This document shows positions 4,195-34,384 of a stretch of 64,000 nt of DNA, piece after piece. The stretch comes from a virus, in the IMG/VR virus record IMGVR_UViG_3300033148_006706, positions 1 to 64,000 of that record, one strand, 5' to 3'. Both the position numbers and the translations under genes were made by a program. The notes under the pieces were generated by a model. The model did not search any database. It saw only the letters and a list, made by a program, of their open reading frames with translations, and was not told the origin of the DNA. How positions within the stretch are numbered: the first letter of the stretch is position 1; each line of letters begins with the position of its first letter.

Positions 4195-5118
4195 ATGGTG
4201 AATATTAAAAAGCAAAAGTTGATAATGTTGAAAGGGCTCCCCGCATCTGGAAAAACTACTTGGGCAAAGGAACAAATTTTAAAAGCCAATGGATCAATAA
4301 AAAGAGTTAATAAAGACGATTTAAGAAAGATGATCGATATATCTCAATGGAGTAAAGAAAAAGAATTACATATCCTAAGGATTAGAGACACGATTATATA
4401 TTATTACCTCAGTAACGGGTATTCAGTAATTGTAGATGATACAAATTTGAATCCATATCATGAACAACGACTCAGACGAATTGTAAGCGAGTATAATAGT
4501 AATGTCAGAGAGCATTCTGTTGAGTTTGAAGTTAATGATTCTTTCTGTGATGTTGATTATCGAGAATGTATTAAAAGAGATTTGATAAGAGGAAAAGAAG
4601 CGGTGGGAGAAAAGGTTATCATTAATATGTATAGAAAATATTTACATAAGGCACCCGTTCTTATTCCTTATAAAGTTGAATTACCCGACTGTATTTTAGT
4701 GGATGTTGATTGGACTCTTGCTATTCATGAATACCGTGATCCTTTTGATTATTATAAATGCACAGAAGATAAATTAAATACACCAATTGCATCTTTAATA
4801 AACGATATTCAAAATCGACATTCACTATCGTATACAATGATTGTAACAGGTAGAGAGAATATAAAGTATGAATCGGGAGTAACAGTTTGGGATTTAACAA
4901 GTGAATGGCTTAATAAAAATCATATTCGTTATGATAGAATTTTTATTAGAGAAGAAGGAGATCATAGACCTGATTGGATGGTAAAAAAAGAAATGTTTGA
5001 AAAGCATATTAAGGATAAATATAACGTGTTATATGTTATAGACGACAGAAGGCAAACTATAGACATGTGGCGTAAAGAGGGATTGACAGTACTTGATGTA
5101 GCTGGTCACGATTTTTAA
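4195..5118 (+). CDS. pseT: Polynucleotide 5'-kinase / 3'-phosphatase (T4 PseT type)
   Basis: Repairs broken RNA ends by adding 5'-phosphate and removing 3'-phosphate, so that RNA ligase can rejoin cut tRNA. The N-terminal kinase has the P-loop GLPASGKT (14-21). The C-terminal half is a HAD phosphatase with VDVDWTLA (nucleophile region D170 and D172), VTGRE and VIDDRRQTIDMWR, in the same order as T4 Pnkp. The usual DxDGT has Trp instead of Gly (W173). Length 307, like T4 PseT (301). AAAGGAAG precedes ATG 4195, and the Rnl1-type ligase follows after 13 bases. The 136 bases upstream hold AT-rich sequence with no clear motif. Confidence 0.93.
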   Translation: MVNIKKQKLIMLKGLPASGKTTWAKEQILKANGSIKRVNKDDLRKMIDISQWSKEKELHILRIRDTIIYYYLSNGYSVIVDDTNLNPYHEQRLRRIVSEYNSNVREHSVEFEVNDSFCDVDYRECIKRDLIRGKEAVGEKVIINMYRKYLHKAPVLIPYKVELPDCILVDVDWTLAIHEYRDPFDYYKCTEDKLNTPIASLINDIQNRHSLSYTMIVTGRENIKYESGVTVWDLTSEWLNKNHIRYDRIFIREEGDHRPDWMVKKEMFEKHIKDKYNVLYVIDDRRQTIDMWRKEGLTVLDVAGHDF

Positions 5119-5131
5119 ATGAGGAAAAAAA

Positions 5132-6262
5132 ATGAATCTATATTTACAGAATTTTTTAATTGAGCATCCCAACGATTGGAAGGAAATATTAAAAGAAAAA
5201 CCTTATGCATTTAAAGTTATAGAGAAAGACGATTTAGTATTATTTAAATATAATCAGATAGACAGTGATTTTAATATTCCTTTAGTACAGGAGGCACGAG
5301 GAATTGTATTTGATAAAAGCGATTGGAGTGTTATTAAGCACCCTTTCCATAAATTTTTTAACTATGGAGAATCTAACGCAGCCGTTATCGATTGGGGATC
5401 AGCTAGTATACAAGAAAAAATTGATGGCTCTCTTATCGCATGTTATTTTTATAAAAATGAATGGATGATATCGACTAACGGAACTATCGATGCACGAGAT
5501 GCAAGTTTACAGTTTCCCGTTCAATTAAATAAAAAGAAAAAAATAAACTCATTTTACGATCTTGTAGTTTATACACTAGAACAAATGTTTGGACGTGATT
5601 ATATTTTTGGAGTTTTCCAGAATATAGATAAAAAGTCAACGCATCTTTTTGAAATAGCAACCCCAATTAATAGGATAGTTGTCCCCTATAAGGATTTTAA
5701 AATTTATTACTTATGTTCAAAGGTAAATAGTACAGGTATCGAATATTACAGTAAACCATTACTTGATAGATTCCCAATTCCGAAAGTATATTCATTTAAT
5801 TCATTGGAAGATTGTGTTAAAGCAGCTAAAGAATTACAATATGATAGTGAGGGCTATGTAATAGTGGATAAAAACTGGAATCGTATTAAAATTAAGAGTC
5901 CAGCATATATAGCTGCGCATCATTTAAGAGGTGAAGATGTCGTAACAGATAAAAAATTACTCAATCTTATTCTTGCTAATGAAGGGAATGAATTTCTTAC
6001 GTATTTCCCCGAGTTTAAAGATGCCTATAATAATTTATATAATAGACTTTTACAGTTAAAAACAAGAATGGGGGCGGATGCAAAAAAGCTTGAAGAGATG
6101 CAGAAAGGGAATAAATCAAGAAAAGAAATAGCTTTATGGGCTAATAAAGAGTGCGTTATACCTGCGTTTATATTTCAATTGCTTGATAAGAAAATTGAAA
6201 ACATTGATAATTTTATATATAATAAATGTAAAGTAGAAAAACTTTTAGAGTATATAAAATAA
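5132..6262 (+). CDS. rnlA: RNA ligase 1 (T4 gp63/RnlA type)
   Basis: Joins 3'-OH and 5'-phosphate ends of single-stranded RNA, in T4 chiefly cleaved tRNA anticodon loops. VQEARGIVFD at about 52-61 matches the conserved region of the T4 enzyme. Motif I is EKIDGSL with predicted lysine K96 (K99 in T4). SEGYVIVDK and RIKIKSPAY fit the later motifs IV and V. Length 376, essentially that of T4 Rnl1 (374). It stands directly behind the kinase-phosphatase, forming the classic end-healing and end-sealing pair. Ribosome site GAGG lies just before ATG 5132. Confidence 0.92.
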   Translation: MNLYLQNFLIEHPNDWKEILKEKPYAFKVIEKDDLVLFKYNQIDSDFNIPLVQEARGIVFDKSDWSVIKHPFHKFFNYGESNAAVIDWGSASIQEKIDGSLIACYFYKNEWMISTNGTIDARDASLQFPVQLNKKKKINSFYDLVVYTLEQMFGRDYIFGVFQNIDKKSTHLFEIATPINRIVVPYKDFKIYYLCSKVNSTGIEYYSKPLLDRFPIPKVYSFNSLEDCVKAAKELQYDSEGYVIVDKNWNRIKIKSPAYIAAHHLRGEDVVTDKKLLNLILANEGNEFLTYFPEFKDAYNNLYNRLLQLKTRMGADAKKLEEMQKGNKSRKEIALWANKECVIPAFIFQLLDKKIENIDNFIYNKCKVEKLLEYIK

Positions 6263-12964: not shown

Positions 12965-13822
12965 ATGAATAATTTTAATTCTGTACAAGGACTTGATCTT
13001 AATCAAGTCAAACAAAGTATAGCGTTTCCTATTTCACGTATGGATTTAGTAACAGAAAATCCACATGAGGAAACAAAATTTCAACTAGTACGGAGGGAAG
13101 ATACGGGGAGGAAGTTAGGTATTATTAGAAAAAATCATCCCACTATTCCATATCCGGATGTTATGGATTGGCTTACTGCTGAATTTGATAACGCTGAAGT
13201 AGTATATAAACTTCGAGATTCGGTAGTAAAAAATGATGGGTCATTATTTCAAGAATATCTTTTTGATTACAATATTGAACCGCCAGATGGTGAGGATATC
13301 TCCCCTCTTGTTATAGTAAAATCAAGTTACGTAGGCCCCCCGCTTGATATATACTTCGGCACCTATCGATTTGTGTGTAGTAATGGAGTAATAACAGGGG
13401 AAACAATTGAAAAAATTCACATTAATGCACGATCCTCCGATATTCTTAATTCATCTATTCGAGATGATATAAGAGTGTCCTTAGATAAATTTGAAAGAGT
13501 AGCGGGGCTGTATAAAAATCTTACTCATGAAAAATTTAATCCATATCTTAATGCAGTCATTGCCAATATGTATATTTCAACTGGAGTTAAGAAAGTAATT
13601 CTTAAAGAACTTCAAAAACAAGGCAGTGTTGAATTATTAAAAGAAAAAATTAAAGCTGAAGACTTTAATGAAAATTTTAGAGAAAATCTATTCAATATAA
13701 TAAATGAAATTACCGCATGGGAATTTTACAATATTGTAACTAATATTGCCACAAGAAAGAGTAATACTGTAGCGGCTCGATTAGGAAATTACATAAATAT
13801 TTCTAAGGTATTTAGAATTTAA
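12965..13822 (+). CDS. DUF932-type phage/plasmid protein
   Basis: 285 residues. The central block VKSSYVGPPLDIYFGTYRFVCSNGVITG is the hallmark of DUF932 proteins (typically NS..G......GafRfvCsNGl). The C-terminus TAWEFYNIVTNIAT...RLGNYINISKVF also fits the family. Function is unknown; members occur in phages and plasmids and are often near recombination genes. AAGGAG precedes ATG 12965 at good spacing. The 60 bases upstream contain ATTTATATTATAAT, a possible promoter different from the late motif. The tmRNA-like RNA begins 8 bases after the stop codon. Confidence 0.75.
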   Translation: MNNFNSVQGLDLNQVKQSIAFPISRMDLVTENPHEETKFQLVRREDTGRKLGIIRKNHPTIPYPDVMDWLTAEFDNAEVVYKLRDSVVKNDGSLFQEYLFDYNIEPPDGEDISPLVIVKSSYVGPPLDIYFGTYRFVCSNGVITGETIEKIHINARSSDILNSSIRDDIRVSLDKFERVAGLYKNLTHEKFNPYLNAVIANMYISTGVKKVILKELQKQGSVELLKEKIKAEDFNENFRENLFNIINEITAWEFYNIVTNIATRKSNTVAARLGNYINISKVFRI

Positions 13823-13830
13823 ATAGAATT

Positions 13831-13942
13831 GGGGATGCAATTGGTTCGACTGTTAAAATAACACGGGGAGAGATACGATGCTCTCCCCGTGCTTTAAAAG
13901 ACGACTTTAACTAGGACGAGGGTTCAAGGCCCTCCATCTCCA
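13831..13942 (+). ncRNA. Minimal tmRNA-like RNA (tRNA-like domain without message region)
   Basis: The 5' end GGGGATG (13831-13837) pairs with CATCTCC (13935-13941), giving a 7-bp acceptor stem with a G-U pair at position 3, the alanine identity mark of tmRNA. TTGGTTCGAC follows, as in the tmRNA D-loop. The 3' part has GGAC and then a T arm, GAGGG (13918-13922) with CCCTC (13930-13934) around loop TTCAAGG; this matches the tmRNA 3' end. GTTAAA (13852-13857) pairs with TTTAAC (13906-13911) as P2. Inside is an 11-bp hairpin, 13862-13872 with 13881-13891. CCA is not encoded. Whole length is 112 nt against about 350 for bacterial tmRNA. No canonical ALAA tag frame is present; GCTTTAAAAGACGACTTTAA would read ALKDDFN then TAG. 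Confidence 0.85.
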
Positions 13943-13958
13943 AAAGTAGAGAAGTAAT

Positions 13959-14219
13959 ATGGTGTGTTTAGAGGATAAAGATAAAGATACTGCACTTACA
14001 AAAGTGGCGATAGGATTTACTCAAGCCGGCAATACTTTAGGAACTACTTCAGATATGGAGGAGTTAACATTGGAGGTGGAAAGTCAGTATGGCGATATTT
14101 CTAAGGGGGGACTTTTTTTTGTTCTAAGAACTAATACAGGATGGAGTTTTGATAATATTAACGATATTGAACAAACGATAAGAAAATTATGGAGTAAATT
14201 AAAAAATATAAAAATTTAA
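13959..14219 (+). CDS. Small conserved phage protein
   Basis: 86 residues starting 17 bases after the tmRNA-like RNA. The segment TKVAIGFTQAGNTLGTTSDME followed by EVESQYGDISKGGLFFVLRT and GWSFDN looks like a folded beta-rich domain that I associate with short phage hypothetical proteins. A weak AGAGAAG precedes ATG 13959. No enzyme motif is visible. The end of the gene is rich in Lys and Ile. Confidence 0.6.
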   Translation: MVCLEDKDKDTALTKVAIGFTQAGNTLGTTSDMEELTLEVESQYGDISKGGLFFVLRTNTGWSFDNINDIEQTIRKLWSKLKNIKI

Positions 14220-16996: not shown

Positions 16997-17028
16997 TGTA
17001 TTAAGATTTAGTAAAAAAAAGAGGAAAT

Positions 17029-18840
17029 ATGGCAAATAATAGCATAATTGATAAGCTAAAAAGTATATTTAATATTTCCAGTGTAAAGACAAATAGTGGC
17101 AATCAGAAAAGGGTGCATCCAGGATATAGAGATGTTAAAACTGGGAAAATAAAACCGGTTAAGTTCCCCGACGACATATTACGTCTTTATGATTATTGGT
17201 TAAAGGATACATTTGAAACTTCATCTTCACTTAAAAATAGACTTGAAAGGTATGCGGCTTTATCTTATGCTTATTATAATAACACTATTTTTTCAAAAGC
17301 TGTTAATCTTTATGCCGATGAAACTGTACAAAGTGATGTAAATGATGAAATATTAAGCGTAGAGGCTGATAAAAAAGTAAAAAATTATATATATGATTTT
17401 CTAGATAAGTTGGGAGTTAGAGAAGGGCAGAAATTGTATGACGTGGCCCATAATTTGGTATTATATGGCGACTCCTTTTGGATAAACTCAATTGATTATA
17501 GAAAAGGAAGCGGTTATACAGATAGTACTCCTGTAAATGTAGAGGATATATCAGATAGAATTGAATTTAATGCATCTAATGTAGCAAAAGATCAGAGAAG
17601 AAACAATAAGTTTCTTATTCATATTCAAAAAGATACTCGTCTTAATATTATTTATAAAATGCTGCAAGATACGAAAGAAAATAATGATTATTCTCAATTT
17701 TTTAAATCTTATCTATTTGGTTTTTGGTTATCAAATAAAGTTTATTTGCCTCCTTGGAATGTTAGCCATTTTAGAATGTTTACTACTATGAATGAATTTG
17801 CTCCTTTCGGTAGACCTGTTATGATTAATTGTTTAGGCCCATATAGACAACTTCAAGCCGGGAAAAATCTTATGGCATTAGCAAGACCTTATAATTTCCC
17901 AATCAAAAAATTTGAAGTAAAAGTAGATGAAAATATGGATCAAGGAGATATATGGGAGGTTGTTGATGAAGCTAAAAGTGAGTATCACAACCTTGGTTAT
18001 AGTGAAACTGATAAAGAACAGTTCGCTATGGGTGGTGAAGTGTGGCTTCCTCAAGGCCTTTTAAATATGGATAATATTGAAAGCAGAATGGATCTTGATG
18101 CTATTGCAGATATTGAAATGCTGCGAGATGATCTTATCATGGGTACGGATATTCCCAAGGGGTATCTAATAGTAGATAGGGCGAGCTTTGGTACAAGTGG
18201 TCAGGCTTTATTACGACAACATAAACCATTTGCACGTTCAGTGTTTAAGATCCAAACAGTTATTCTGGAACAAATTTCACAATTAATCCGTTTACAATTT
18301 GTAATTAGTAATGATTTTGATTATGATACGCCTTTTGAATTAAGTATGCCGTTTCCTGAAGTTGAGGAGAGTAGTGATAGATTAAGGATGAAGAGTGATA
18401 CGCTTAGACTTGCCAAGGACGTACTAGATAACATAGGGGATGCAATAGGTCTTGAACGAGGAGAGGCGCTGCCTCCCGATGTTGTAAAAGCAGTGTTTTC
18501 ACAAATTTCATTTCTGAATGATGATGATATAATAAAATGGATTGACGATACAATAAAAATGCAACAGCAAAAGCCTGATGAAGGAGAGGAGTCTAAAGAC
18601 TATATGTTTGAAAGTAAAAAATTTGCAAATAGGAATAAGATACAGGAACGTTTGACTCCGAAAACAATACGTGAATGCTGGAATAAAGCTAGAAAAAATA
18701 CAAGAATATATGAAAACATTAGTAACGACAGGCATCATTATAGCTCTTATAATATGAACCCCGATCATAGATTACAATTGGAACTTTTATCAATTGATCC
18801 TAAAAAATTAAAGGAAAAATATGGTATTAATAAGGAATAA
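17029..18840 (+). CDS. Portal protein (gp20-like)
   Basis: Dodecameric ring at the head vertex through which DNA passes and to which the terminase docks. 603 residues, near the gp20 length of 524 but with a longer C-terminus. The central part (IEMLRDDLIMGTDIPKGYL, then RASFGTSGQALLRQHKPFAR) matches myovirus portals, which have a conserved clip/wing region with a similar G-T-S-G-Q core. The final 90 residues (ERLTPKTIRECWNKARKN and on) are basic. GAGG precedes ATG 17029. Protease, scaffold and capsid follow in the usual order. Confidence 0.88.
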   Translation: MANNSIIDKLKSIFNISSVKTNSGNQKRVHPGYRDVKTGKIKPVKFPDDILRLYDYWLKDTFETSSSLKNRLERYAALSYAYYNNTIFSKAVNLYADETVQSDVNDEILSVEADKKVKNYIYDFLDKLGVREGQKLYDVAHNLVLYGDSFWINSIDYRKGSGYTDSTPVNVEDISDRIEFNASNVAKDQRRNNKFLIHIQKDTRLNIIYKMLQDTKENNDYSQFFKSYLFGFWLSNKVYLPPWNVSHFRMFTTMNEFAPFGRPVMINCLGPYRQLQAGKNLMALARPYNFPIKKFEVKVDENMDQGDIWEVVDEAKSEYHNLGYSETDKEQFAMGGEVWLPQGLLNMDNIESRMDLDAIADIEMLRDDLIMGTDIPKGYLIVDRASFGTSGQALLRQHKPFARSVFKIQTVILEQISQLIRLQFVISNDFDYDTPFELSMPFPEVEESSDRLRMKSDTLRLAKDVLDNIGDAIGLERGEALPPDVVKAVFSQISFLNDDDIIKWIDDTIKMQQQKPDEGEESKDYMFESKKFANRNKIQERLTPKTIRECWNKARKNTRIYENISNDRHHYSSYNMNPDHRLQLELLSIDPKKLKEKYGINKE

Positions 18841-26422: not shown

Positions 26423-26927
26423 GATTATAAATTTTAAAGAAAAGATTTATGGAAATATGGCAATAGTTTTCCATAGAACTAGCGTTTCAGATTTAGTAAA
26501 TAAAGTTTTTACAAGTGGATTTAAACCTGGTACAGGAGATAAATATGGAAGAGGATTTTATGCTACTTATGAACTTGAGTCACAAGAGCGACCAGAAATG
26601 AAGAAATATGGAACCTGGAAAAATGGAACTTGGAGAAATGGAGTCTGAAAAGACGGAACCTGGAAAAAAGGAATCTGGAAAGATGGGATTTGGGAAGACG
26701 GAGCTTGGGAAGGCGGGCAATGGGAAAAAGGAGTTTGGAAAAAAGGTACCTGGGAAAATGGGATTTGGGAGTATGGAACTTGGGAAAATGGAGATTGGAA
26801 AGATGGAATTTGGGAAAGTGGGGTGTGGAAAGGTGGAAAGATATGGAACCCTCAAACAAAAAAATATCAGTATAGTGACAAAAACCCTTATGATTGCGAA
26901 TGGAGCTTGAGTTATTATAAAAGATAA
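26415..26927 (+). pseudogene. ART-like/GxWxx repeat protein with an internal TGA
   Basis: The N-terminus reads MIKIINFKEKIYGNMAIVFH, then RTSVSDLVNKVFTSGFKPGT and YGRGFYATYEL; the HRTS, SGF and YGxGFYAT order resembles the start of ADP-ribosyltransferase-like phage domains. At about residue 62 it passes straight into GTWKNGTW repeats. TGA at 26646-26648 then stops the frame where every paralog has TGG. Beyond it the same frame continues through some 13 more repeats and the standard cap (GGKIWNPQ, CEWSLSYYKR) to TAA 26925-26927. One base change (TGG to TGA) explains the break. The ART-like part is too short to be a full enzyme. Confidence 0.8.
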
Positions 26928-26960
26928 TAATATTTATGACATAAGGAGGGAGAGTAAAAC

Positions 26961-28253
26961 GTGATTAAAATATTTAAAAACCTGAACCTTCTTGAAAAGA
27001 AAGATCACATTATAAGAAAAATGCCCAATTTGACTAGTGAGCAGAAGGAAGAACTAATAAACTTTTTCAATAGACACCCAAATTATGAAAATAGGGTCGA
27101 TTGGAATAAGTGGAGAACTTTAACATACGAAGATTTTAAAGACATTCTTGAAATTGAATCCAAAACTCAAAGGAAGAAATCCGTTAAGACAAGAGGAATA
27201 AAAGGACTAAAAGAGGGTAAGGATTATATTCAATTGAAGAATTTGCCCGACGATATACAAGGATATATTCCTTTGAATTACGAGGCATCAAAATTTATTG
27301 CTTCTAGATATGTAGGAGGCATTGAAGGAAAATGGTGTACTGCATATCAAAAAACCGATAAATATTGGGAAGAATATAAAAGCTACGGGGTAATTTTTAT
27401 ATATTTAATCAAAGACAATGAAAAATATGCAATAGCTGTTTATCTCGACAATAAAACTTATGAAATTTATAATAAAGATGACGATAAAATTTCTTTTATA
27501 GAAGGCATTAATATTAAATCAGATATATTAAATGATCGAAATGTTTCTCTTTTTGAAAAAGTAAGAAAAGAAATCGGTTTTGAACATTGGATTACCAAAG
27601 CTGAAATATCAAAGGATGCTAAGTTTGAATATGGCGAATTTAGGCAAATAGTTTGGTTAGATGGGGCGTGGTATAAAGGGACTTGGTATAACGGAATTTG
27701 GAAAAATGGAATTTGGAAAAATGGAACTTGGGAAGATGGTTCTTGGAAGAGTGGAACTTGGAAGAGTGGAACTTGGAAGTTTGGAACTTGGGAAGATGGA
27801 ATATGGGAAAATGGAAATTGGATAATGGGATTATGGGAAGATGGAATTTGGAAAGACGGAACTTGGAAAGATGGAACTTGGGAGGATGGAACATGGAAAA
27901 GTGGAATTTGGAACAAAGGGGGATGGACAAAAGGGATATGGGAAGACGGAATATGGAAAAATGGAATTTGGGGTGGAGGAACCTGGGAAAGTGGAATTTG
28001 GAAGGATGGATCTTGGATTAAGGGGACGTGGATTAATGGAACTTGGGAATTTGGAACTTGGTATAACGGAATTTGGAAAAACGGAACTTGGAAAGATGGA
28101 ACTTGGATTGATGGGGAATGGAAAGACGGAATCTGGAAAGATGGAGTATGGAAAGGTGGAAAAATATGGGATCCTCAAATAGAAAAATATCAATATAGTG
28201 ACAAAAACCCCTATGATTGTGAATGGAGCTTAAGTTATTACAAAGAACAATAG
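26961..28253 (+). CDS. GxWxx repeat protein, type A copy 1
   Basis: 430 residues. The type A N-terminal module (about 1-225) begins MIKIFKNLNLLEKKDHIIRK, has LTSEQKEELINFF, and contains a domain centred on GKWCTAYQKT and KYAIAVY that I know only as an unassigned element of large-phage proteins. Residues about 233-398 are some 33 pentapeptides of the GTWKD kind. The end is a fixed cap, GGKIWDPQ...YQYSDKNPYDCEWSLSYYK. Small Gly and large Trp alternate as the small and bulky core residues do in pentapeptide-repeat beta-helices, so a rod-like stalk is likely (inference). GTG start with AGGAGGG upstream. The linker FEHWITKAEISKDAKFEYGE differs from copies 2, 3, 5 and 6. Confidence 0.85.
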   Translation: MIKIFKNLNLLEKKDHIIRKMPNLTSEQKEELINFFNRHPNYENRVDWNKWRTLTYEDFKDILEIESKTQRKKSVKTRGIKGLKEGKDYIQLKNLPDDIQGYIPLNYEASKFIASRYVGGIEGKWCTAYQKTDKYWEEYKSYGVIFIYLIKDNEKYAIAVYLDNKTYEIYNKDDDKISFIEGINIKSDILNDRNVSLFEKVRKEIGFEHWITKAEISKDAKFEYGEFRQIVWLDGAWYKGTWYNGIWKNGIWKNGTWEDGSWKSGTWKSGTWKFGTWEDGIWENGNWIMGLWEDGIWKDGTWKDGTWEDGTWKSGIWNKGGWTKGIWEDGIWKNGIWGGGTWESGIWKDGSWIKGTWINGTWEFGTWYNGIWKNGTWKDGTWIDGEWKDGIWKDGVWKGGKIWDPQIEKYQYSDKNPYDCEWSLSYYKEQ

Positions 28254-28285
28254 TATTTATATTATAAAGATGGTGGTTGAGGGGC

Positions 28286-29563
28286 ATGATCAAAATATTT
28301 AAAAATTTAAACTTACTTGAAAAAAAAGATCATATTATAAGAAAAATACCTAATTTGACTAATGAGCAGAAGGAGGAGCTGATAAACTTTTTCGATAAAC
28401 ACCCAAATTACGAAAATAGAATTGATTGGAACAGGTGGAGGACTTTAACATACGAAGATTTTAAGGGTATTCTTGAAATTGAATCAAAGACTCAGAAAAA
28501 AAAATCCGTTAAGATAAGTGGAATAAAAGGACTAAAAGAGGGTGAGGATTATATTCAACTGAAAGGGTTGCCCGATGATACGCAAGGATACATACCTCTA
28601 AATTACGAGGCTTCAAAATTTATTGCTTCTAGATATGTAGGGGGTATCGAGGGGAGATGGTGTACAGCATATCAAAAAACTAGGGAATATTGGGAAAAAT
28701 ATACAAGTGAGAATATAATCTTAATTTATTTGATTAATAATAATACAAAATATGCAATAGCCGTTTATCCAAATAATAAAACTCATAAAATTTATGATAG
28801 TGATGACAACAAAATTTCTTATATTCCCGGTATTGATATTAACCGAGATATATTAAATAAAAGAAACATTTCTATTTTTGAAAAAATAAGAAGAGAAGTT
28901 GAAGACTATAAGCATTGGATTCATAAAGCTGAAATATCAAGAGACGCTAGATTCGAAATTGATAAAACAAATCAAGTAATTTGGTACAAAGGGACTTGGG
29001 TAGATGGGGTATGGGAAAGGGGAACTTGGATTAATGGGATTTGGTTTGATGGTTATTGGGCAAAAGGAGCTTGGAAGAATGGAATTTGGAGAGGGGGAAC
29101 TTGGGAAAAAGGAACTTGGGAAGACGGAACCTGGGAAAAAGGAATTTGGTATGGCGGGACTTGGAAAGATGGAATTTGGGAACATGGAACTTGGAAAGAT
29201 GGAACTTGGAAATATGGAACCTGGAAAAATGGAGTTTGGGAAAGTGGAACTTGGAAAGATGGAGTCTGGAAAAGCGGAACCTGGAAAAATGGAGCCTGGG
29301 AAAGCGGAACTTGGAAAGATGGAACCTGGAAGCTTGGAATCTGGGAACTTGGGACTTGGATTAATGGAACCTGGGAGTCTGGAACTTGGGAATATGGAAC
29401 CTGGAAAGATGGAGTCTGGGAAGGTGGGGATTGGGACGATGGAAATTGGGAAAAGGGAGTATGGAAAGGTGGAAGGATATGGAATCCAGAAACAGGAAAA
29501 TATCAATATAGCGATAAGAACCCAAACGAATGTGAATGGAGCTTAAGTTATTACAAAAGATAA
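28286..29563 (+). CDS. GxWxx repeat protein, type A copy 2
   Basis: 425 residues from ATG 28286 (a TTG three codons earlier is in frame). It has the same N-terminal module as copy 1 but the second linker form, VEDYKHWIHKAEISRDARFE, entering repeats near residue 233. The array includes the segment KLGIWELGTW, whose DNA at 29330-29359 is identical for 30 bases to part of a type B gene (48555-48584). It ends EGGDWDDGNWEKGVWKGGRI before the common cap, an ending shared with copy 6. Confidence 0.85.
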   Translation: MIKIFKNLNLLEKKDHIIRKIPNLTNEQKEELINFFDKHPNYENRIDWNRWRTLTYEDFKGILEIESKTQKKKSVKISGIKGLKEGEDYIQLKGLPDDTQGYIPLNYEASKFIASRYVGGIEGRWCTAYQKTREYWEKYTSENIILIYLINNNTKYAIAVYPNNKTHKIYDSDDNKISYIPGIDINRDILNKRNISIFEKIRREVEDYKHWIHKAEISRDARFEIDKTNQVIWYKGTWVDGVWERGTWINGIWFDGYWAKGAWKNGIWRGGTWEKGTWEDGTWEKGIWYGGTWKDGIWEHGTWKDGTWKYGTWKNGVWESGTWKDGVWKSGTWKNGAWESGTWKDGTWKLGIWELGTWINGTWESGTWEYGTWKDGVWEGGDWDDGNWEKGVWKGGRIWNPETGKYQYSDKNPNECEWSLSYYKR

Positions 29564-29582
29564 TAATATGGGGGAGTAAAAC

Positions 29583-30725
29583 GTGATTAAAATATTTAAA
29601 AATCTGAACCTTCTTGAAAAAAAAGATCACATTATAAGAAAAATACCTAATTTGACTAGTGAACAGAAGGAGGAGCTAATAAATTTTTTCAATAAACACC
29701 CAAATTACGAGAACAGAATTGATTGGAATAAGTGGAAAACTTTAACATACGAAGATTTTAAAGACATTCTAGGGATTGAATCTAAGACTCAAAGGAAAAA
29801 ATCCGTTAAGATAAGTGGAATAAAAGGATTAAAAGAGGGCGAGGATTATATTCAATTGAAGAATTTGCCTGACGATACGCAAGGATATATCCCTTTGAAT
29901 TACGAGGCTTCAAAATTTATTGCTTCTAGATATGTAGGGGGTATCGAGGGGAAATGGTGTACAGCATACCAAAAAACTAGGGAATATTGGGAAGAATATA
30001 AAAGTGATAGGATAATTTTTATATATTTAATCAAAGACAATGAAAAATATGCAATAGCCGTTTATCCTGACAATAGAACTTATGAAGTTTATGATAAAAA
30101 TGATAACAAAATTTCTTATATTCCCGGTATTGATATTAAACGAGATATATTAAATAAAAAAAATATTTCTATTTTTGAAAAAATAAAAAGAGAAGTTGAA
30201 GACTACAAGCATTGGATTTATAAAGTTAAAATATCAAAAGACGCTAGATTTGAAATTGATAAGACGAATCGGGTATTTTGGTATGAAGGGACTTGGATAG
30301 ATGAGGTATGGGAAAGTGGAACCTGGAAAGATGGAACTTGGCTTGATGGTTATTGGACAGATGGAACTTGGGAGAATGGAACCTGGGAAAATGGTACTTG
30401 GGAATATGGAATCTGGGAAAATGGGGTTTGGAAAGACGGAATTTGGAAAGATGGAACTTGGTTGAAGGGGGTTTGGAAAGAGGGAATTTGGAAAAATGGA
30501 GTTTGGGAAAATGGAACTTGGGAAGATGGGACATGGGAGGATGGGTTTTGGGAAAATGGAATCTGGAAAGATGGAACTTGGAAAGATGGAACTTGGAAGG
30601 ATGGAATCTGGAAAGACGGAGTGTGGAAAGGTGGAAAGATATGGAACCCTCAAACAAAAAAATATCAGTATAGTAACAAAAACCCCTATGATTGTGAATG
30701 GGGTTTAAGCTATTACAAGAAATAA
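29583..30725 (+). CDS. GxWxx repeat protein, type A copy 3
   Basis: 380 residues, GTG start with GGGGGAG before it. The N-terminal module is nearly identical to copy 2, including TREYWEEYKS and PGIDIKRDILNKKN. The repeat array is shorter (about 30270-30640, near 24 units). One early unit reads IDEVW in place of IDGVW, a Gly-to-Glu change in an otherwise fixed position. The cap is KIWNPQTKKYQYSNKNPYD followed by CEWGLSYYKK. The 19-base gap after copy 2 shows the tight tandem arrangement. Confidence 0.85.
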   Translation: MIKIFKNLNLLEKKDHIIRKIPNLTSEQKEELINFFNKHPNYENRIDWNKWKTLTYEDFKDILGIESKTQRKKSVKISGIKGLKEGEDYIQLKNLPDDTQGYIPLNYEASKFIASRYVGGIEGKWCTAYQKTREYWEEYKSDRIIFIYLIKDNEKYAIAVYPDNRTYEVYDKNDNKISYIPGIDIKRDILNKKNISIFEKIKREVEDYKHWIYKVKISKDARFEIDKTNRVFWYEGTWIDEVWESGTWKDGTWLDGYWTDGTWENGTWENGTWEYGIWENGVWKDGIWKDGTWLKGVWKEGIWKNGVWENGTWEDGTWEDGFWENGIWKDGTWKDGTWKDGIWKDGVWKGGKIWNPQTKKYQYSNKNPYDCEWGLSYYKK

Positions 30726-30761
30726 TAATACTTATATTATAAAAATGGGGGGTTGAGGGGC

Positions 30762-31550
30762 ATGATCAAAATATTTAAAAATTTGAACCTTCTTGAAAAA
30801 AAAGATCACATTATAAGAAAAATGCCCAATTTAACTAGTGAACAGAAGGAAGAAATAATAAATTTTTTTAATAAGTGTCCAAATTACGAGAATGGAATTG
30901 ATTGGAACGAGTGGGAAACTTTAATATATGAAGATTTTAAGAATATTCTTAAAATTGATCCCAGAATTCAAGGAAGGGAATTTGTTAAAATAAGCGGAAT
31001 AAAAGAATTAAAGAGGGGTGATGATTATATTCAATTGAAGAAAGCCCCTAATAATGTGCAAGAATACACCCCCTTAGATTATAAAGCGTCAAAATTTATT
31101 ATTTCTGAAAAAGAAATCGGTTTTGAGCATTGGATTACCAAAGCTGAAATATTAAAGGAGGCTAAATTTAAATTTGATGGGCCTACACAAATAATTTGGT
31201 TAAGTGGAACTTGGAAAAACGGAACTTGGAAAAACGGAACTTGGAAGGATGGGATTTGGGAAAACGGAACCTGGCAAACTGGAACTTGGGAAAATGGAAC
31301 TTGGAAAAACGGAACTTGGGAAGACGGAATTTGGAAAAATGGAACTTGGAAATTTGGAACTTGGAAAGGTGGGGTTTGGAATGATGGGATTTGGGTAATG
31401 GGAATTTGGAAAGATGGAAATTGGAAAGATGGAGCATGGAAAGGCGGGGAGATATGGAATCTAGAAACAAGAAAATATGAATATAGCGATAAAAACCCAT
31501 ACGAATGTGAATGGAGTTTAAGTTATAGAAAGTTTCCATATCAATATTAA
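30762..31550 (+). CDS. GxWxx repeat protein, type A copy 4, internally deleted
   Basis: 262 residues from ATG 30762. The N-terminal helix-rich start is kept, but the sequence jumps from DYKASKFIISE straight to KEIGFEHWITKAEILKEAKF. About 90 residues containing the WCTAY domain are missing, with the frame preserved. The linker matches copy 1. More point differences than in other copies (EEIINFFNKCPNYENGIDWN, YTPLDYKAS) indicate that this copy is under weaker constraint. The array has about 17 units and the usual cap, then a few extra residues (FPYQY). Confidence 0.8.
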   Translation: MIKIFKNLNLLEKKDHIIRKMPNLTSEQKEEIINFFNKCPNYENGIDWNEWETLIYEDFKNILKIDPRIQGREFVKISGIKELKRGDDYIQLKKAPNNVQEYTPLDYKASKFIISEKEIGFEHWITKAEILKEAKFKFDGPTQIIWLSGTWKNGTWKNGTWKDGIWENGTWQTGTWENGTWKNGTWEDGIWKNGTWKFGTWKGGVWNDGIWVMGIWKDGNWKDGAWKGGEIWNLETRKYEYSDKNPYECEWSLSYRKFPYQY

Positions 31551-31563
31551 AAAGAGGTGTGTT

Positions 31564-31797
31564 GTGGAAATAATAAATGAAGAAGAATTTAGAATAGATT
31601 ATAGCAATTTTTATATAGCATATAATAAAACTCAAGATTTATGGTATGCACGACATGAGAATGAAGATTTATATGAAGAAGATGTTATTATTGATATAGA
31701 AAATTTAAAAGATGAACCGGTGGAGCTATTTGATGGCTTTATACTTGATATACAAGAATTTAAAGAAATAGAGGGGCTAAAAAATACGATCATTTAG
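31564..31797 (+). CDS. Small acidic protein inside the repeat-protein cluster
   Basis: 77 residues, GTG start with AGAGGTG upstream, 13 bases after copy 4. Very acidic: MEIINEEEFRIDYSNFYIAY, then ENEDLYEEDVIIDIENLKDE. No repeats and no resemblance to the flanking family. The 133 bases after it hold no gene; TACTAAGATATGA at 31798 is a poor match to the late motif. Function unknown. Confidence 0.5.
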   Translation: MEIINEEEFRIDYSNFYIAYNKTQDLWYARHENEDLYEEDVIIDIENLKDEPVELFDGFILDIQEFKEIEGLKNTII

Positions 31798-31930
31798 TAC
31801 TAAGATATGAAAAGATAGATTAAGATGATGCTTGGTTAGAAAAATGATTACAATTTTTGAATTTTAAGAAAAAACTTATAGAGTTTAAGTTATAATAAAA
31901 AATAGATTAGAGAGATATGCGGTATAAAAG

Positions 31931-33163
31931 ATGGTTAGAATATTCAAAAATTTAAATTTACTCGAAAAGAAAGATCATATTATAAGAAAAATGCCCAATT
32001 TGACTAGTGAACAAAAAGAAGAGCTGATAAATTTCTTTAGTAGGCATCCTAACTATGAAAATAGAATTGATTGGAATAAGTGGAAAACTTTAACATACGA
32101 AGATTTTAAAGACATTCTAGGAATTGAATCAAAGACTCAAAGAAAGAAATCTGTTAAGATAAGTGGAATAAAAGGATTAAAAGAGGGCAAGGATTATATT
32201 CAACTGAAAGGGTTGCCTGACGATATGCAAGGATACATTCCTTTAAACTATGAGGCATCAAAATTTATTGCCTCTAAATATGTAGGAGGCATCAAAGGAA
32301 AATGGTGCACAGCATATCGAAAAAGTAAGGAATATTGGGAAAAATATACAAGTAAGAGTATAATCTTAATTTATTTGATTGGTAATAATACAAAATATGC
32401 AATATCCGTTTATCTAGATAATAGAACTTATGAAATTTATGATAGTAAGGATAACAAAATTTCTTATATTCCCGGTATTGATATTAAACGAGATATATTA
32501 AATAAAAGAAATATTTTTATTTTTGAAAAAATAAGAAGAGAAGTTGAAGACTACAAGCATTGGATTTATAAAGTTAAAATATTAAAAGGCGCTAGATTTG
32601 AAATTGATAAGACAAATCAAGTAATTTGGTATAAAGGAATTTGGATAGATGGAGTATGGGAAAGGGGAACTTGGGTTAATGGAGTTTGGCTTGATGGTTA
32701 TTGGACAGATGGAACTTGGGAAGACGGAACTTGGAAAGAGGGGACTTGGGAAAAGGGAACCTGGAAAGACGGAACCTGGGAAAAAGGAATTTGGTATGGC
32801 GGGATTTGGAAAGATGGGATCTGGGAATTTGGAACTTGGAAAGATGGAACTTGGAAAGGGGGGACTTGGGAAAAGGGTACTTGGGAAGACGGAACTTGGG
32901 AAGATGGCTTCTGGGAAAACGGAACTTGGGAAGATGGGACTTGGCTGGAGGGGGTTTGGAAAGATGGAACTTGGGAAGACGGAACTTGGGAAGATGGAAC
33001 TTGGAAATATGGAGTCTGGGAAGGTGGAGTTTGGAAAGATGGAATTTGGGAAAGTGGAGTGTGGGAAGGTGGAAAGATATGGAACCTGAAAACAAAAAAA
33101 TATAAATATAGCGATAAGAACCCATACGAATGTGAATGGAGTTTGAGTTATTACAAAAGATAA
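31931..33163 (+). CDS. GxWxx repeat protein, type A copy 5
   Basis: 410 residues, starting MVRIFKNLNLLEKKDHIIRK from ATG 31931. The N-terminal module has GGIKGKWCTAYRKSKEYWEK, with Arg and Ser changes next to the WCTAY motif, and the VEDYKHWIYKVKILKGARFE linker. Repeats cover about 32625-33080, with many units of the GTWEDGTW type and a LEGVW unit also seen in other copies. The cap reads KIWNLKTKKYKYSDKNPYE followed by CEWSLSYYKR. Confidence 0.85.
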   Translation: MVRIFKNLNLLEKKDHIIRKMPNLTSEQKEELINFFSRHPNYENRIDWNKWKTLTYEDFKDILGIESKTQRKKSVKISGIKGLKEGKDYIQLKGLPDDMQGYIPLNYEASKFIASKYVGGIKGKWCTAYRKSKEYWEKYTSKSIILIYLIGNNTKYAISVYLDNRTYEIYDSKDNKISYIPGIDIKRDILNKRNIFIFEKIRREVEDYKHWIYKVKILKGARFEIDKTNQVIWYKGIWIDGVWERGTWVNGVWLDGYWTDGTWEDGTWKEGTWEKGTWKDGTWEKGIWYGGIWKDGIWEFGTWKDGTWKGGTWEKGTWEDGTWEDGFWENGTWEDGTWLEGVWKDGTWEDGTWEDGTWKYGVWEGGVWKDGIWESGVWEGGKIWNLKTKKYKYSDKNPYECEWSLSYYKR

Positions 33164-33196
33164 TAATATTTATGGCGTAAAAAGGGAGAATAAAAG

Positions 33197-34384
33197 ATGA
33201 TTAGAATATTTAAAAATTTAAACTTACTTGAAAAAAAAGATCATATTATAAGAAAGATGCCCAATTTGACTAGTGAGCAGAAGGAAGAGCTAATAAACTT
33301 TTTCAACAAACATCCAAATTATGAAAACAGGATTGATTGGAACAAATGGAAAACTTTAACTTATGATGATTTTAAAAATGTTCTAGGGATTGAATCTAAA
33401 ACTCAGAGAAAAAAATCTGTCAAAACAAAAGGAATACGGGGATTAAAGGAAGGCGAGGATTATGTTCAATTAAAAGAACTTCCAAATAATGTAGAGGCAT
33501 ATATTCCTTTAAATTATGAGGCTTCAAAATTTATTGCCTCCAAATATGTAGGGGGTATCGAGGGAAAATGGTGTACTGCATATCAAAAAACCGATGAGTA
33601 TTGGAAGAAATATACAAATGAGAGTATAATCTTAATTTATTTAATTAGTAATGATACAAAATATGCAATAGCCGTTTATCCAAATAATAAAACTCATAAA
33701 ATTTATGATAGTGATGATAACAAAATTTCTTATATCCCTGATATTTATATTAACCGAGATATATTAAATAAAAGAAACATTTCTATTTTTGAAAAAATAA
33801 GAAGAGAAGTTGAAGATTATAAGCATTGGGTTCATAAAGCTGAAATATCGAAAGACGCCAAATTCGAAATTGATAAGACAAATCAAGTAATTTGGTACAA
33901 AGGGGTTTGGATAGATGGATTATGGGAAAGGGGAACCTGGAAAGATGGAACTTGGGAATATGGAATCTGGAAAGATGGTATCTGGGAAAAAGGAATCTGG
34001 AAAGATGGTATTTGGGAAGACGGAACTTGGAAATTTGGAACTTGGGTATACGGAATTTGGATAGATGGAACTTGGGAAAACGGAACTTGGAAGAAGGGAA
34101 CCTGGGAAGATGGAGTCTGGGAAACCGGAACTTGGGCGAAAGGAACTTGGGAAGATGGAATCTGGAAAGATGGGGTTTGGAAAGATGGAACCTGGGAGTC
34201 TGGAACTTGGGAATATGGAACCTGGAAAGATGGCATCTGGGAAGGTGGGGATTGGGACGATGGAAATTGGGAAAAGGGAGTATGGAAAGGTGGAAGGATA
34301 TGGAGTTCAAAAACAGAAAGATATGAATATAGTGTAAAAAATCCTTATGACTGTAAATGGAGTTTAAGCTATAAAAAACGTTAG
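33197..34384 (+). CDS. GxWxx repeat protein, type A copy 6
   Basis: 395 residues, ATG 33197 with AGGGAG upstream. It is the most divergent full N-terminal module (KTKGIRGLKEGEDYVQLKEL, LPNNVEAYIPLNYEAS), yet WCTAYQKTDEYW is kept. The array ends with the same EGGDWDDGNWEKGVWKGGRI segment as copy 2, then a cap in which several conserved positions have changed (IWSSKTERYEYSVKNPYDCK). It is the last member of cluster A; a consensus late promoter follows. Confidence 0.85.
   Translation: MIRIFKNLNLLEKKDHIIRKMPNLTSEQKEELINFFNKHPNYENRIDWNKWKTLTYDDFKNVLGIESKTQRKKSVKTKGIRGLKEGEDYVQLKELPNNVEAYIPLNYEASKFIASKYVGGIEGKWCTAYQKTDEYWKKYTNESIILIYLISNDTKYAIAVYPNNKTHKIYDSDDNKISYIPDIYINRDILNKRNISIFEKIRREVEDYKHWVHKAEISKDAKFEIDKTNQVIWYKGVWIDGLWERGTWKDGTWEYGIWKDGIWEKGIWKDGIWEDGTWKFGTWVYGIWIDGTWENGTWKKGTWEDGVWETGTWAKGTWEDGIWKDGVWKDGTWESGTWEYGTWKDGIWEGGDWDDGNWEKGVWKGGRIWSSKTERYEYSVKNPYDCKWSLSYKKR

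What the first reader, a model, noticed from the sequence alone, without database searches (positions are those of the whole stretch)
13831..13942. A 112-nt phage RNA that keeps the tRNA-like domain of tmRNA but not its message
All parts of the tmRNA tRNA-like domain are present: 7-bp acceptor stem with the alanine-type G3-U pair, a TTGGTTCGAC D-loop, GGAC and a perfect T arm, and a P2 helix. Where tmRNA has pseudoknots and the tag frame, there is one 11-bp hairpin and a short stretch that could read ALKDDFN-stop. Such an RNA could be charged with alanine and bind SmpB, yet not tag proteins normally. It may block host trans-translation, release stalled ribosomes without tagging, or act as a shortened tmRNA. 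It sits with RNA repair enzymes that also protect translation.
Basis: partly seen in the sequence, partly recalled or inferred. Interest (0 to 1): 0.85.

Follow-up and report, generated by a model that had tools for sequence, protein, structure and literature searches.

The report
Message-less tmRNA carried by a phage
This phage carries a 112-base RNA that keeps the tRNA-like half of the bacterial ribosome-rescue RNA (tmRNA) but has lost the message half; more than a hundred different phage RNAs of this type turned up, all keeping the alanine-charging signal, so many phages probably use such decoys to jam or bypass their host's ribosome rescue.

Summary
Window 13831-13942 (+) matches the Rfam tmRNA model from end to end (44.4 bits, E 1.1e-17 in the 139.9-kb virus record), just under the curated cut-off because the decoding domain is absent. 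Acceptor stem (7/7, G3-U), T arm and an 11-bp central hairpin are solid; P2 is weak. The "ALKDDFN" frame is expected by chance.

Four contigs of the same phage (>=99.98% identical) give no covariation for this copy. The kind, however, is real and widespread: pattern scans of IMG/VR found 118 distinct one-piece RNAs of 65-136 nt with the same plan, including in isolated Streptomyces phages and a Stenotrophomonas phage, unannotated. Acceptor pairs 4-7 covary freely (38 distinct stems), yet G3-U70 and A73 are kept in 118/118. A model built without the window finds this RNA and nothing else in the window (48.6 bits). None of 43 carriers tested has SmpB.

Prior art: mycobacteriophage DS6A carries a TLD-only tmRNA, and a similar molecule inhibits E. 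coli tmRNA. Best explanation: an alanine-charged decoy competing with host tmRNA for SmpB, EF-Tu and stalled ribosomes. New: breadth, covariation, invariant alanine identity, this copy's own central domain. Expression and binding are untested.

The parts
13831..13942 (+). TLD-only tmRNA-like RNA, predicted mature form up to the discriminator base A13942 (CCA not encoded)
   Evidence: RF00023 1-374, 44.4 bits, E 1.1e-17; model R1 built without the window 48.6 bits, E 9.4e-10, only hit in the window
13831..13837 (+). acceptor stem 5' strand GGGGAUG; G13833 forms the G3-U70 pair
   Evidence: sequence; pairing probability 0.98-1.0
13935..13941 (+). acceptor stem 3' strand CAUCUCC; U13939 is the partner of G3
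   Evidence: sequence
13841..13850 (+). D-loop-like segment UUGGUUCGAC
   Evidence: sequence; RF00023 alignment
13852..13857 (+). P2 helix 5' strand GUUAAA (pairs with 13906-13911)
   Evidence: 6/6 pairs, but only about 0.25 probability in the free RNA
13906..13911 (+). P2 helix 3' strand UUUAAC
13862..13891 (+). 11-bp hairpin (13862-13872 / 13881-13891, 8-nt loop) in the place of the pseudoknots and tag region
   Evidence: pairing probability 0.99-1.0
13914..13934 (+). GGAC plus T arm (GAGGG UUCAAGG CCCUC)
   Evidence: sequence; probability 0.99-1.0 for the T stem

Best explanation
It is a phage-encoded tmRNA derivative reduced to the tRNA-like domain (TLD). It is probably cut out of the operon transcript between two genes by tRNA-processing enzymes, given CCA and charged with alanine by the host AlaRS (G3-U70, A73). 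The Ala-TLD then binds host SmpB and EF-Tu and competes with host tmRNA for stalled ribosomes. Having no resume codon, it cannot add a degradation tag, so trans-translation is inhibited during infection. Shown here: TLD anatomy, absence of a message domain, breadth of the family in phages, covariation in relatives, invariant alanine identity, absence of phage SmpB. Inferred: transcription, processing, charging, SmpB binding, inhibition.
For: End-to-end tmRNA match with the middle missing. A model from 28 other viral TLD-only RNAs finds the window RNA. In the relatives 94.9% of pair cells are paired against 71.5% in shuffles, with double changes in P2 and in acceptor pairs 4-7. G3-U70 and A73 in 118/118 distinct sequences with 38 acceptor stems; neither was part of the search patterns. 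A like filter on 72 GTDB stretches that fit the pattern passes only one, a Mycobacterium MAG contig. No SmpB in 43 carriers and no second strong tmRNA match in 40. Literature: DS6A is 'TLD only', and a similar molecule, chargeable or not, strongly inhibits tmRNA, perhaps by titrating SmpB (PMC4131195; PMC11915505). G-U as AlaRS identity element: PMC3985003.
Against: No transcript, charging or SmpB-binding data. The window copy exists only in four contigs of one phage, so its own helices are not tested by covariation. P2 is weak alone. If inhibition needs no charging, as reported for the DS6A-like molecule, pure SmpB titration would not explain why G3-U is never lost; that points to a step using the charged form, which may be rescue rather than inhibition.
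Confidence: 0.55

Rival explanations
1. Tagless ribosome rescue: the Ala-TLD with SmpB and EF-Tu enters stalled ribosomes, takes the nascent chain and lets it drop off without a tag, keeping ribosomes in use while sparing phage proteins from degradation.
For: G3-U70 and A73 are never lost in 118 distinct sequences, which fits a role for the charged form better than simple SmpB titration. Mitochondrial tmRNAs without a tag frame are kept together with SmpB (PMC11915505).
Against: The published test of a DS6A-like molecule showed inhibition, charged or not (PMC4131195). No known step would release a peptidyl-TLD that has no resume codon.
Confidence: 0.22
2. A working miniature tmRNA with a very short tag, ALKDDFN.
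For: The frame GCT TTA AAA GAC GAC TTT AAC TAG exists at 13891-13914. Two-residue tags are known in bacteria (PMC11915505).
Against: A GCN-to-stop frame of at least 5 codons occurs in 47.5% of shuffles of the middle part. The frame begins in the hairpin, runs through the P2 strand, and its stop codon uses the first G of GGAC. Most relatives have only about 20-35 nt between the two TLD halves.
Confidence: 0.04
3. An mRNA punctuation element: a tRNA mimic that recruits RNase P and 3' tRNase to split the operon transcript.
For: It fills the 136-nt gap between two same-strand genes (stop at 13822, start at 13959; median gap 34). No promoter or terminator stands out on the + strand around it.
Against: Processing does not need G3-U, A73, GGAC or the tmRNA-type D-loop, which are all present.
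Confidence: 0.08
4. A decaying remnant of a full tmRNA gene caught from a host, or an attachment-site relic.
For: tmRNA genes are common integration sites; no diverged syntenic copy of the window RNA was found.
Against: All 7 acceptor, 5 T-stem and 11 hairpin pairs are intact and both halves are present in order. The Streptomyces phages BRock, LuckySocke and pSt2308 keep syntenic copies with different, compensated acceptor stems. Among bacterial genomes only one of 72 pattern hits is TLD-only.
Confidence: 0.08

Closest known systems
TLD-only tmRNA of mycobacteriophage DS6A (tmID 11587; Mao et al. 2009; Hudson et al. 2014)
   Different: Here 112 nt with an 11-bp GC-rich hairpin on a weak P2, in an AT-rich myovirus without close relatives; DS6A itself is not in the phage collection, so no direct alignment was made
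Full-length and permuted phage tmRNAs (Bxz1 group, phage G, Melnitz)
   Same: Same TLD; phage-borne; no phage SmpB in the three such records tested (G002, G010, G015)
   Different: Those keep the tag frame; ARAGORN finds such genes but misses the TLD-only kind
tmRNAs without a tag frame in jakobid mitochondria and Mallomonadaceae plastids
   Same: TLD without message
   Different: Organellar, with nucleus-encoded SmpB in the mitochondrial case, no conflict with a host (PMC11915505)
Rfam RF00023 tmRNA
   Same: Homologous over both ends of the model; 37 of 40 viral relatives pass the cut-off
   Different: No pseudoknots and no tag region; the window copy scores 44.4 against a cut-off of 47

Membership tests
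tmRNA (ssrA), full function | tRNA-like domain: 7-bp acceptor, D-loop UUCGAC, GGAC, T arm | tested here: met
tmRNA (ssrA), full function | alanine identity: G3-U70 pair and A73 | tested here: met
   118/118 in the wider set
tmRNA (ssrA), full function | tag reading frame with resume codon | tested here: not met
   only a chance-level frame ALKDDFN; message part of the model deleted
tmRNA (ssrA), full function | pseudoknots PK1-PK4 | tested here: not met
   one 11-bp hairpin in their place
tmRNA (ssrA), full function | Rfam RF00023 gathering score 47 | tested here: not met
   44.4 bits, although E is 1.1e-17
tmRNA (ssrA), full function | SmpB binding and alanylation | not testable with these tools
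   needs biochemistry
Permuted (two-piece) tmRNA | 3' piece upstream of 5' piece | tested here: not met
   both halves in normal order; RF04321 only 11 bits, E 6.1; no ARAGORN tmRNA*
TLD-only phage tmRNA (DS6A kind) | complete TLD in one piece without message, on a phage genome | tested here: met
   tail sheath and tape measure genes in the record
TLD-only phage tmRNA (DS6A kind) | inhibits host trans-translation | not testable with these tools
   reported for a similar molecule (PMC4131195)
short viral TLD-only RNAs found here (65-83 nt) | P2 - A-rich asymmetric loop - short hairpin - P2' | tested here: not met
   the window has the TLD and a weak P2, but a longer, different middle
tRNA | anticodon arm / ARAGORN or tRNA model call | tested here: not met
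   ARAGORN finds none; the tmRNA model is the best of the clan

The most novel reading that the evidence does not exclude
TLD-only tmRNAs are a large, old and overlooked class of phage RNA under selection to stay charged with alanine. They work through the charged form, by entering stalled ribosomes with host SmpB and EF-Tu, either as dead-end interceptors of trans-translation or as tagless rescue agents, rather than merely soaking up SmpB. The window RNA is a divergent subtype with its own central domain.
Probability: 0.45. Interest if true: 0.85.

Novelty: new variant of a known kind. Interest (0 to 1): 0.72.

Why it matters
Trans-translation is near-universal in bacteria and a drug target, and a phage RNA that interferes with it has been discussed for one phage, DS6A. 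A family of over a hundred distinct phage RNAs, with alanine identity never lost, suggests that control of ribosome rescue is a common part of infection. It can be tested now, since isolated Streptomyces phages and a Stenotrophomonas phage carry it unannotated. It would also give natural minimal TLDs for structural and inhibitor work.

Tried and rejected
Default Rfam and ARAGORN scans are silent and would have dismissed the RNA. DNA similarity of the locus in named phages: none. DS6A record: not held under JN698994 or NC_023744; the mycobacterial MAG contig with a TLD-only RNA has no near match either. Searches for diverged relatives of this phage by a flanking protein and the DNA polymerase found only the same phage; its baseplate protein has no match in named phages, so its host and the covariation of its own RNA stay open. 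Several first-round candidates (L039, L045, L048, L049) proved to be permuted tmRNAs with real tags and were dropped. Most GTDB pattern hits examined are 3' ends of full-length tmRNAs. A tag frame ALKDDFN was rejected. Mao et al. 2009 itself is not held; its result is taken from two later papers.

Full report
What is there. Window 13831-13942 on the + strand lies in the 136-nt gap between two same-strand genes (stop codon ends at 13822, next start at 13959; median gap in this block 34 nt). The first and last parts are those of tmRNA: GGGGAUG / CAUCUCC with G3-U70, UUGGUUCGAC, GGAC and a perfect T arm, then discriminator A13942. CCA is not encoded. Rfam's tmRNA model aligns from position 1 to 374 with its middle deleted, 44.4 bits, E 2e-16 in 601 nt and 1.1e-17 over the 139,904-base virus record. 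The gathering score is 47, so a default scan misses it, as does ARAGORN. The RNA folds far better than shuffles (z -4.77). Pairing probabilities are 0.98-1.0 for acceptor stem, T stem and the 11-bp hairpin, but only about 0.25 for P2, which competes with a second UUUAA.

What is not there. There is no pseudoknot and no credible tag. The ALKDDFN frame is of a sort seen in 47.5% of shuffles. It is not a permuted gene: both halves are in normal order and the permuted model gives 11 bits, E 6.1. The phage record has no SmpB.

The genome that carries it. The record is a myovirus (tail sheath, tape measure, baseplate, RIIA, DNA polymerase, ribonucleotide reductase) of about 31-32% G+C. It carries an RNA repair set: Rnl2-like ligase 1045-2031, PNKP 4195-5118, Rnl1-like ligase 5132-6262. 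These are 7.5-13 kb upstream; the direct neighbours are a helicase loader, a DnaB-like helicase, a DUF932-like gene and a YspA/SLOG gene. The three other contigs with the RNA are the same phage (at least 99.98% identity over 15-21 kb), so this copy cannot be tested by covariation.

Relatives. Pattern scans of IMG/VR for TTCGAC, a gap of 15-105 nt, and GGAC plus T arm, followed by a test of the acceptor stem, give 118 distinct sequences with 7/7 acceptor pairs (the window's and those of the named phages included), 3 with 6/7, and 69 stretches with 5 or fewer. Of these RNAs 96 are about 72-82 nt long. The result is bimodal, as real stems should be: in one unfiltered scan 28 of 37 distinct stretches had 7/7 pairs and none had 6/7. 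Acceptor pairs 4-7 vary with compensation (38 distinct stems), but pairs 1-3, including G3-U70, and A73 never do (118/118). TTCGAC, GGAC and the T-arm core were fixed by the patterns and are no evidence; the acceptor stem, A73 and P2 were free. How many independent phage lineages the 118 sequences represent was not worked out.

Covariation. On 28 short relatives 94.9% of pair cells are paired against 71.5% in shuffles, the covariation score is 0.549 against 0.124, and sliding the 3' partner by 1-3 columns destroys it. P2 varies on both sides in all five pairs (acceptor stems and four P2 pairs had entered the choice of these sequences, so the percentage paired is inflated, but the variety of pair types is not). 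A covariance model built from these 28, without the window, finds window 13831-13945 with 48.6 bits, E 9.4e-10, and nothing else in the window. A caution: 3' ends of some full-length bacterial tmRNAs reach 47 bits with this model, so the model score shows TLD homology, while the TLD-only state rests on the contiguous acceptor pairing.

Phage-specific. In 40 viral records the TLD-only RNA is the only strong tmRNA match, 37 of them over Rfam's cut-off. together tested 51 viral records for SmpB, 43 of them carriers of a TLD-only RNA; none has it. In one genome each of about 85,000 bacterial and archaeal species, 72 stretches fit the comparable pattern; those examined are mostly full-length tmRNA 3' ends, and a single one, a Mycobacterium MAG contig (L191), is TLD-only. 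Isolated phages carry it: Streptomyces phages BRock, LuckySocke, pSt2308, GiJojo, Alone3 (with a damaged T stem), Riptide and Shaeky, and Stenotrophomonas phage Jojan60. None is annotated as such in the features shown. In the BRock group the copies are syntenic in a tRNA cluster, and their acceptor stems differ by compensated changes (GGGUUUG/CAAAUCC, GGGUCUG/CAGAUCC, GGGGCUG/CAGCUCC), which shows selection within one phage lineage. Most other copies are not near tRNA genes (91 of 118).

What is known. Mycobacteriophage DS6A is listed as 'TLD only', and a similar molecule, chargeable or not, strongly inhibits tmRNA, perhaps by titrating SmpB (Hudson et al. 2014, PMC4131195, citing Mao et al. 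2009). A 2025 survey names DS6A as the phage example beside message-less organellar tmRNAs (PMC11915505). A 2022 survey counted 402 phages with tmRNAs (PMC9004378) and sorted them with ARAGORN, a program that misses nearly all RNAs of this kind (3 of 118 overlapped by any ARAGORN gene). G-U at the third pair is the main AlaRS identity element (PMC3985003). I found no report of a wide phage family, but subscription papers are mostly not held.

Mechanism. The best-supported reading is an alanine-charged decoy of tmRNA that takes host SmpB, EF-Tu and stalled ribosomes and cannot tag. The steps of anatomy, phage origin, covariation of the class and conserved alanine identity are shown; transcription, processing, charging, SmpB binding and inhibition are inferred. 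The invariant G3-U argues that the charged form matters, which simple titration of SmpB would not need. This keeps tagless rescue as the main rival.

Noticed in passing
L062, L068, L037, L064, L073, L040, L036, L072, L120/L129: A middle-sized class of viral TLD-only RNAs (104-136 nt) shares an A-rich central motif (like GGxGAAAAxGCCC ... AAGAC ... GAAAA) inside a second helix, possibly a relic of a tmRNA pseudoknot.
   Followed up: partly
L225:526-606 (Streptomyces phage GiJojo, record 17025-17105): The TLD-only RNA lies under an annotated protein gene (gene 44), which is probably a wrong annotation.
   Followed up: no
L216, L217 (Pseudomonas Samunavirus phages), L224 (Acinetobacter phage vB_AbaM_3098), L226 (Bordetella phage PHB04): Permuted tmRNA genes with plausible tags (such as ANDTSFDVRLAA) that are not annotated in the records.
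   Followed up: no
L222 (Enterococcus phage ZJGS2), L223 and L227 (uncultured giant phages): Unannotated one-piece full-length tmRNAs with tags AKNEELLAVA, GNNAEMRMAA and ANPEFAMAA.
   Followed up: no
window 26600-27600 and 29224-30194: About 82% identical repeat of nearly 1 kb within a block of similar-sized same-strand genes (26961-34384), seen when comparing L024 with the window.
   Followed up: no
L054:4534-4626 (-), record 108534-108626: ARAGORN reports a single tRNA-like gene with an unreadable anticodon, the only tRNA call in the record.
   Followed up: no
L197 (Polyangia MAG): Repeated T-arm-like matches about 100-200 nt apart along 2 kb; possibly a tRNA or tRNA-like array.
   Followed up: no
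L137, L211 (Streptomyces phages BRock and pSt2308): The TLD-only RNA lies in a tRNA cluster bounded by an RNA ligase and a Ro-like RNA-binding protein, a set that may act together on small RNAs.
   Followed up: no
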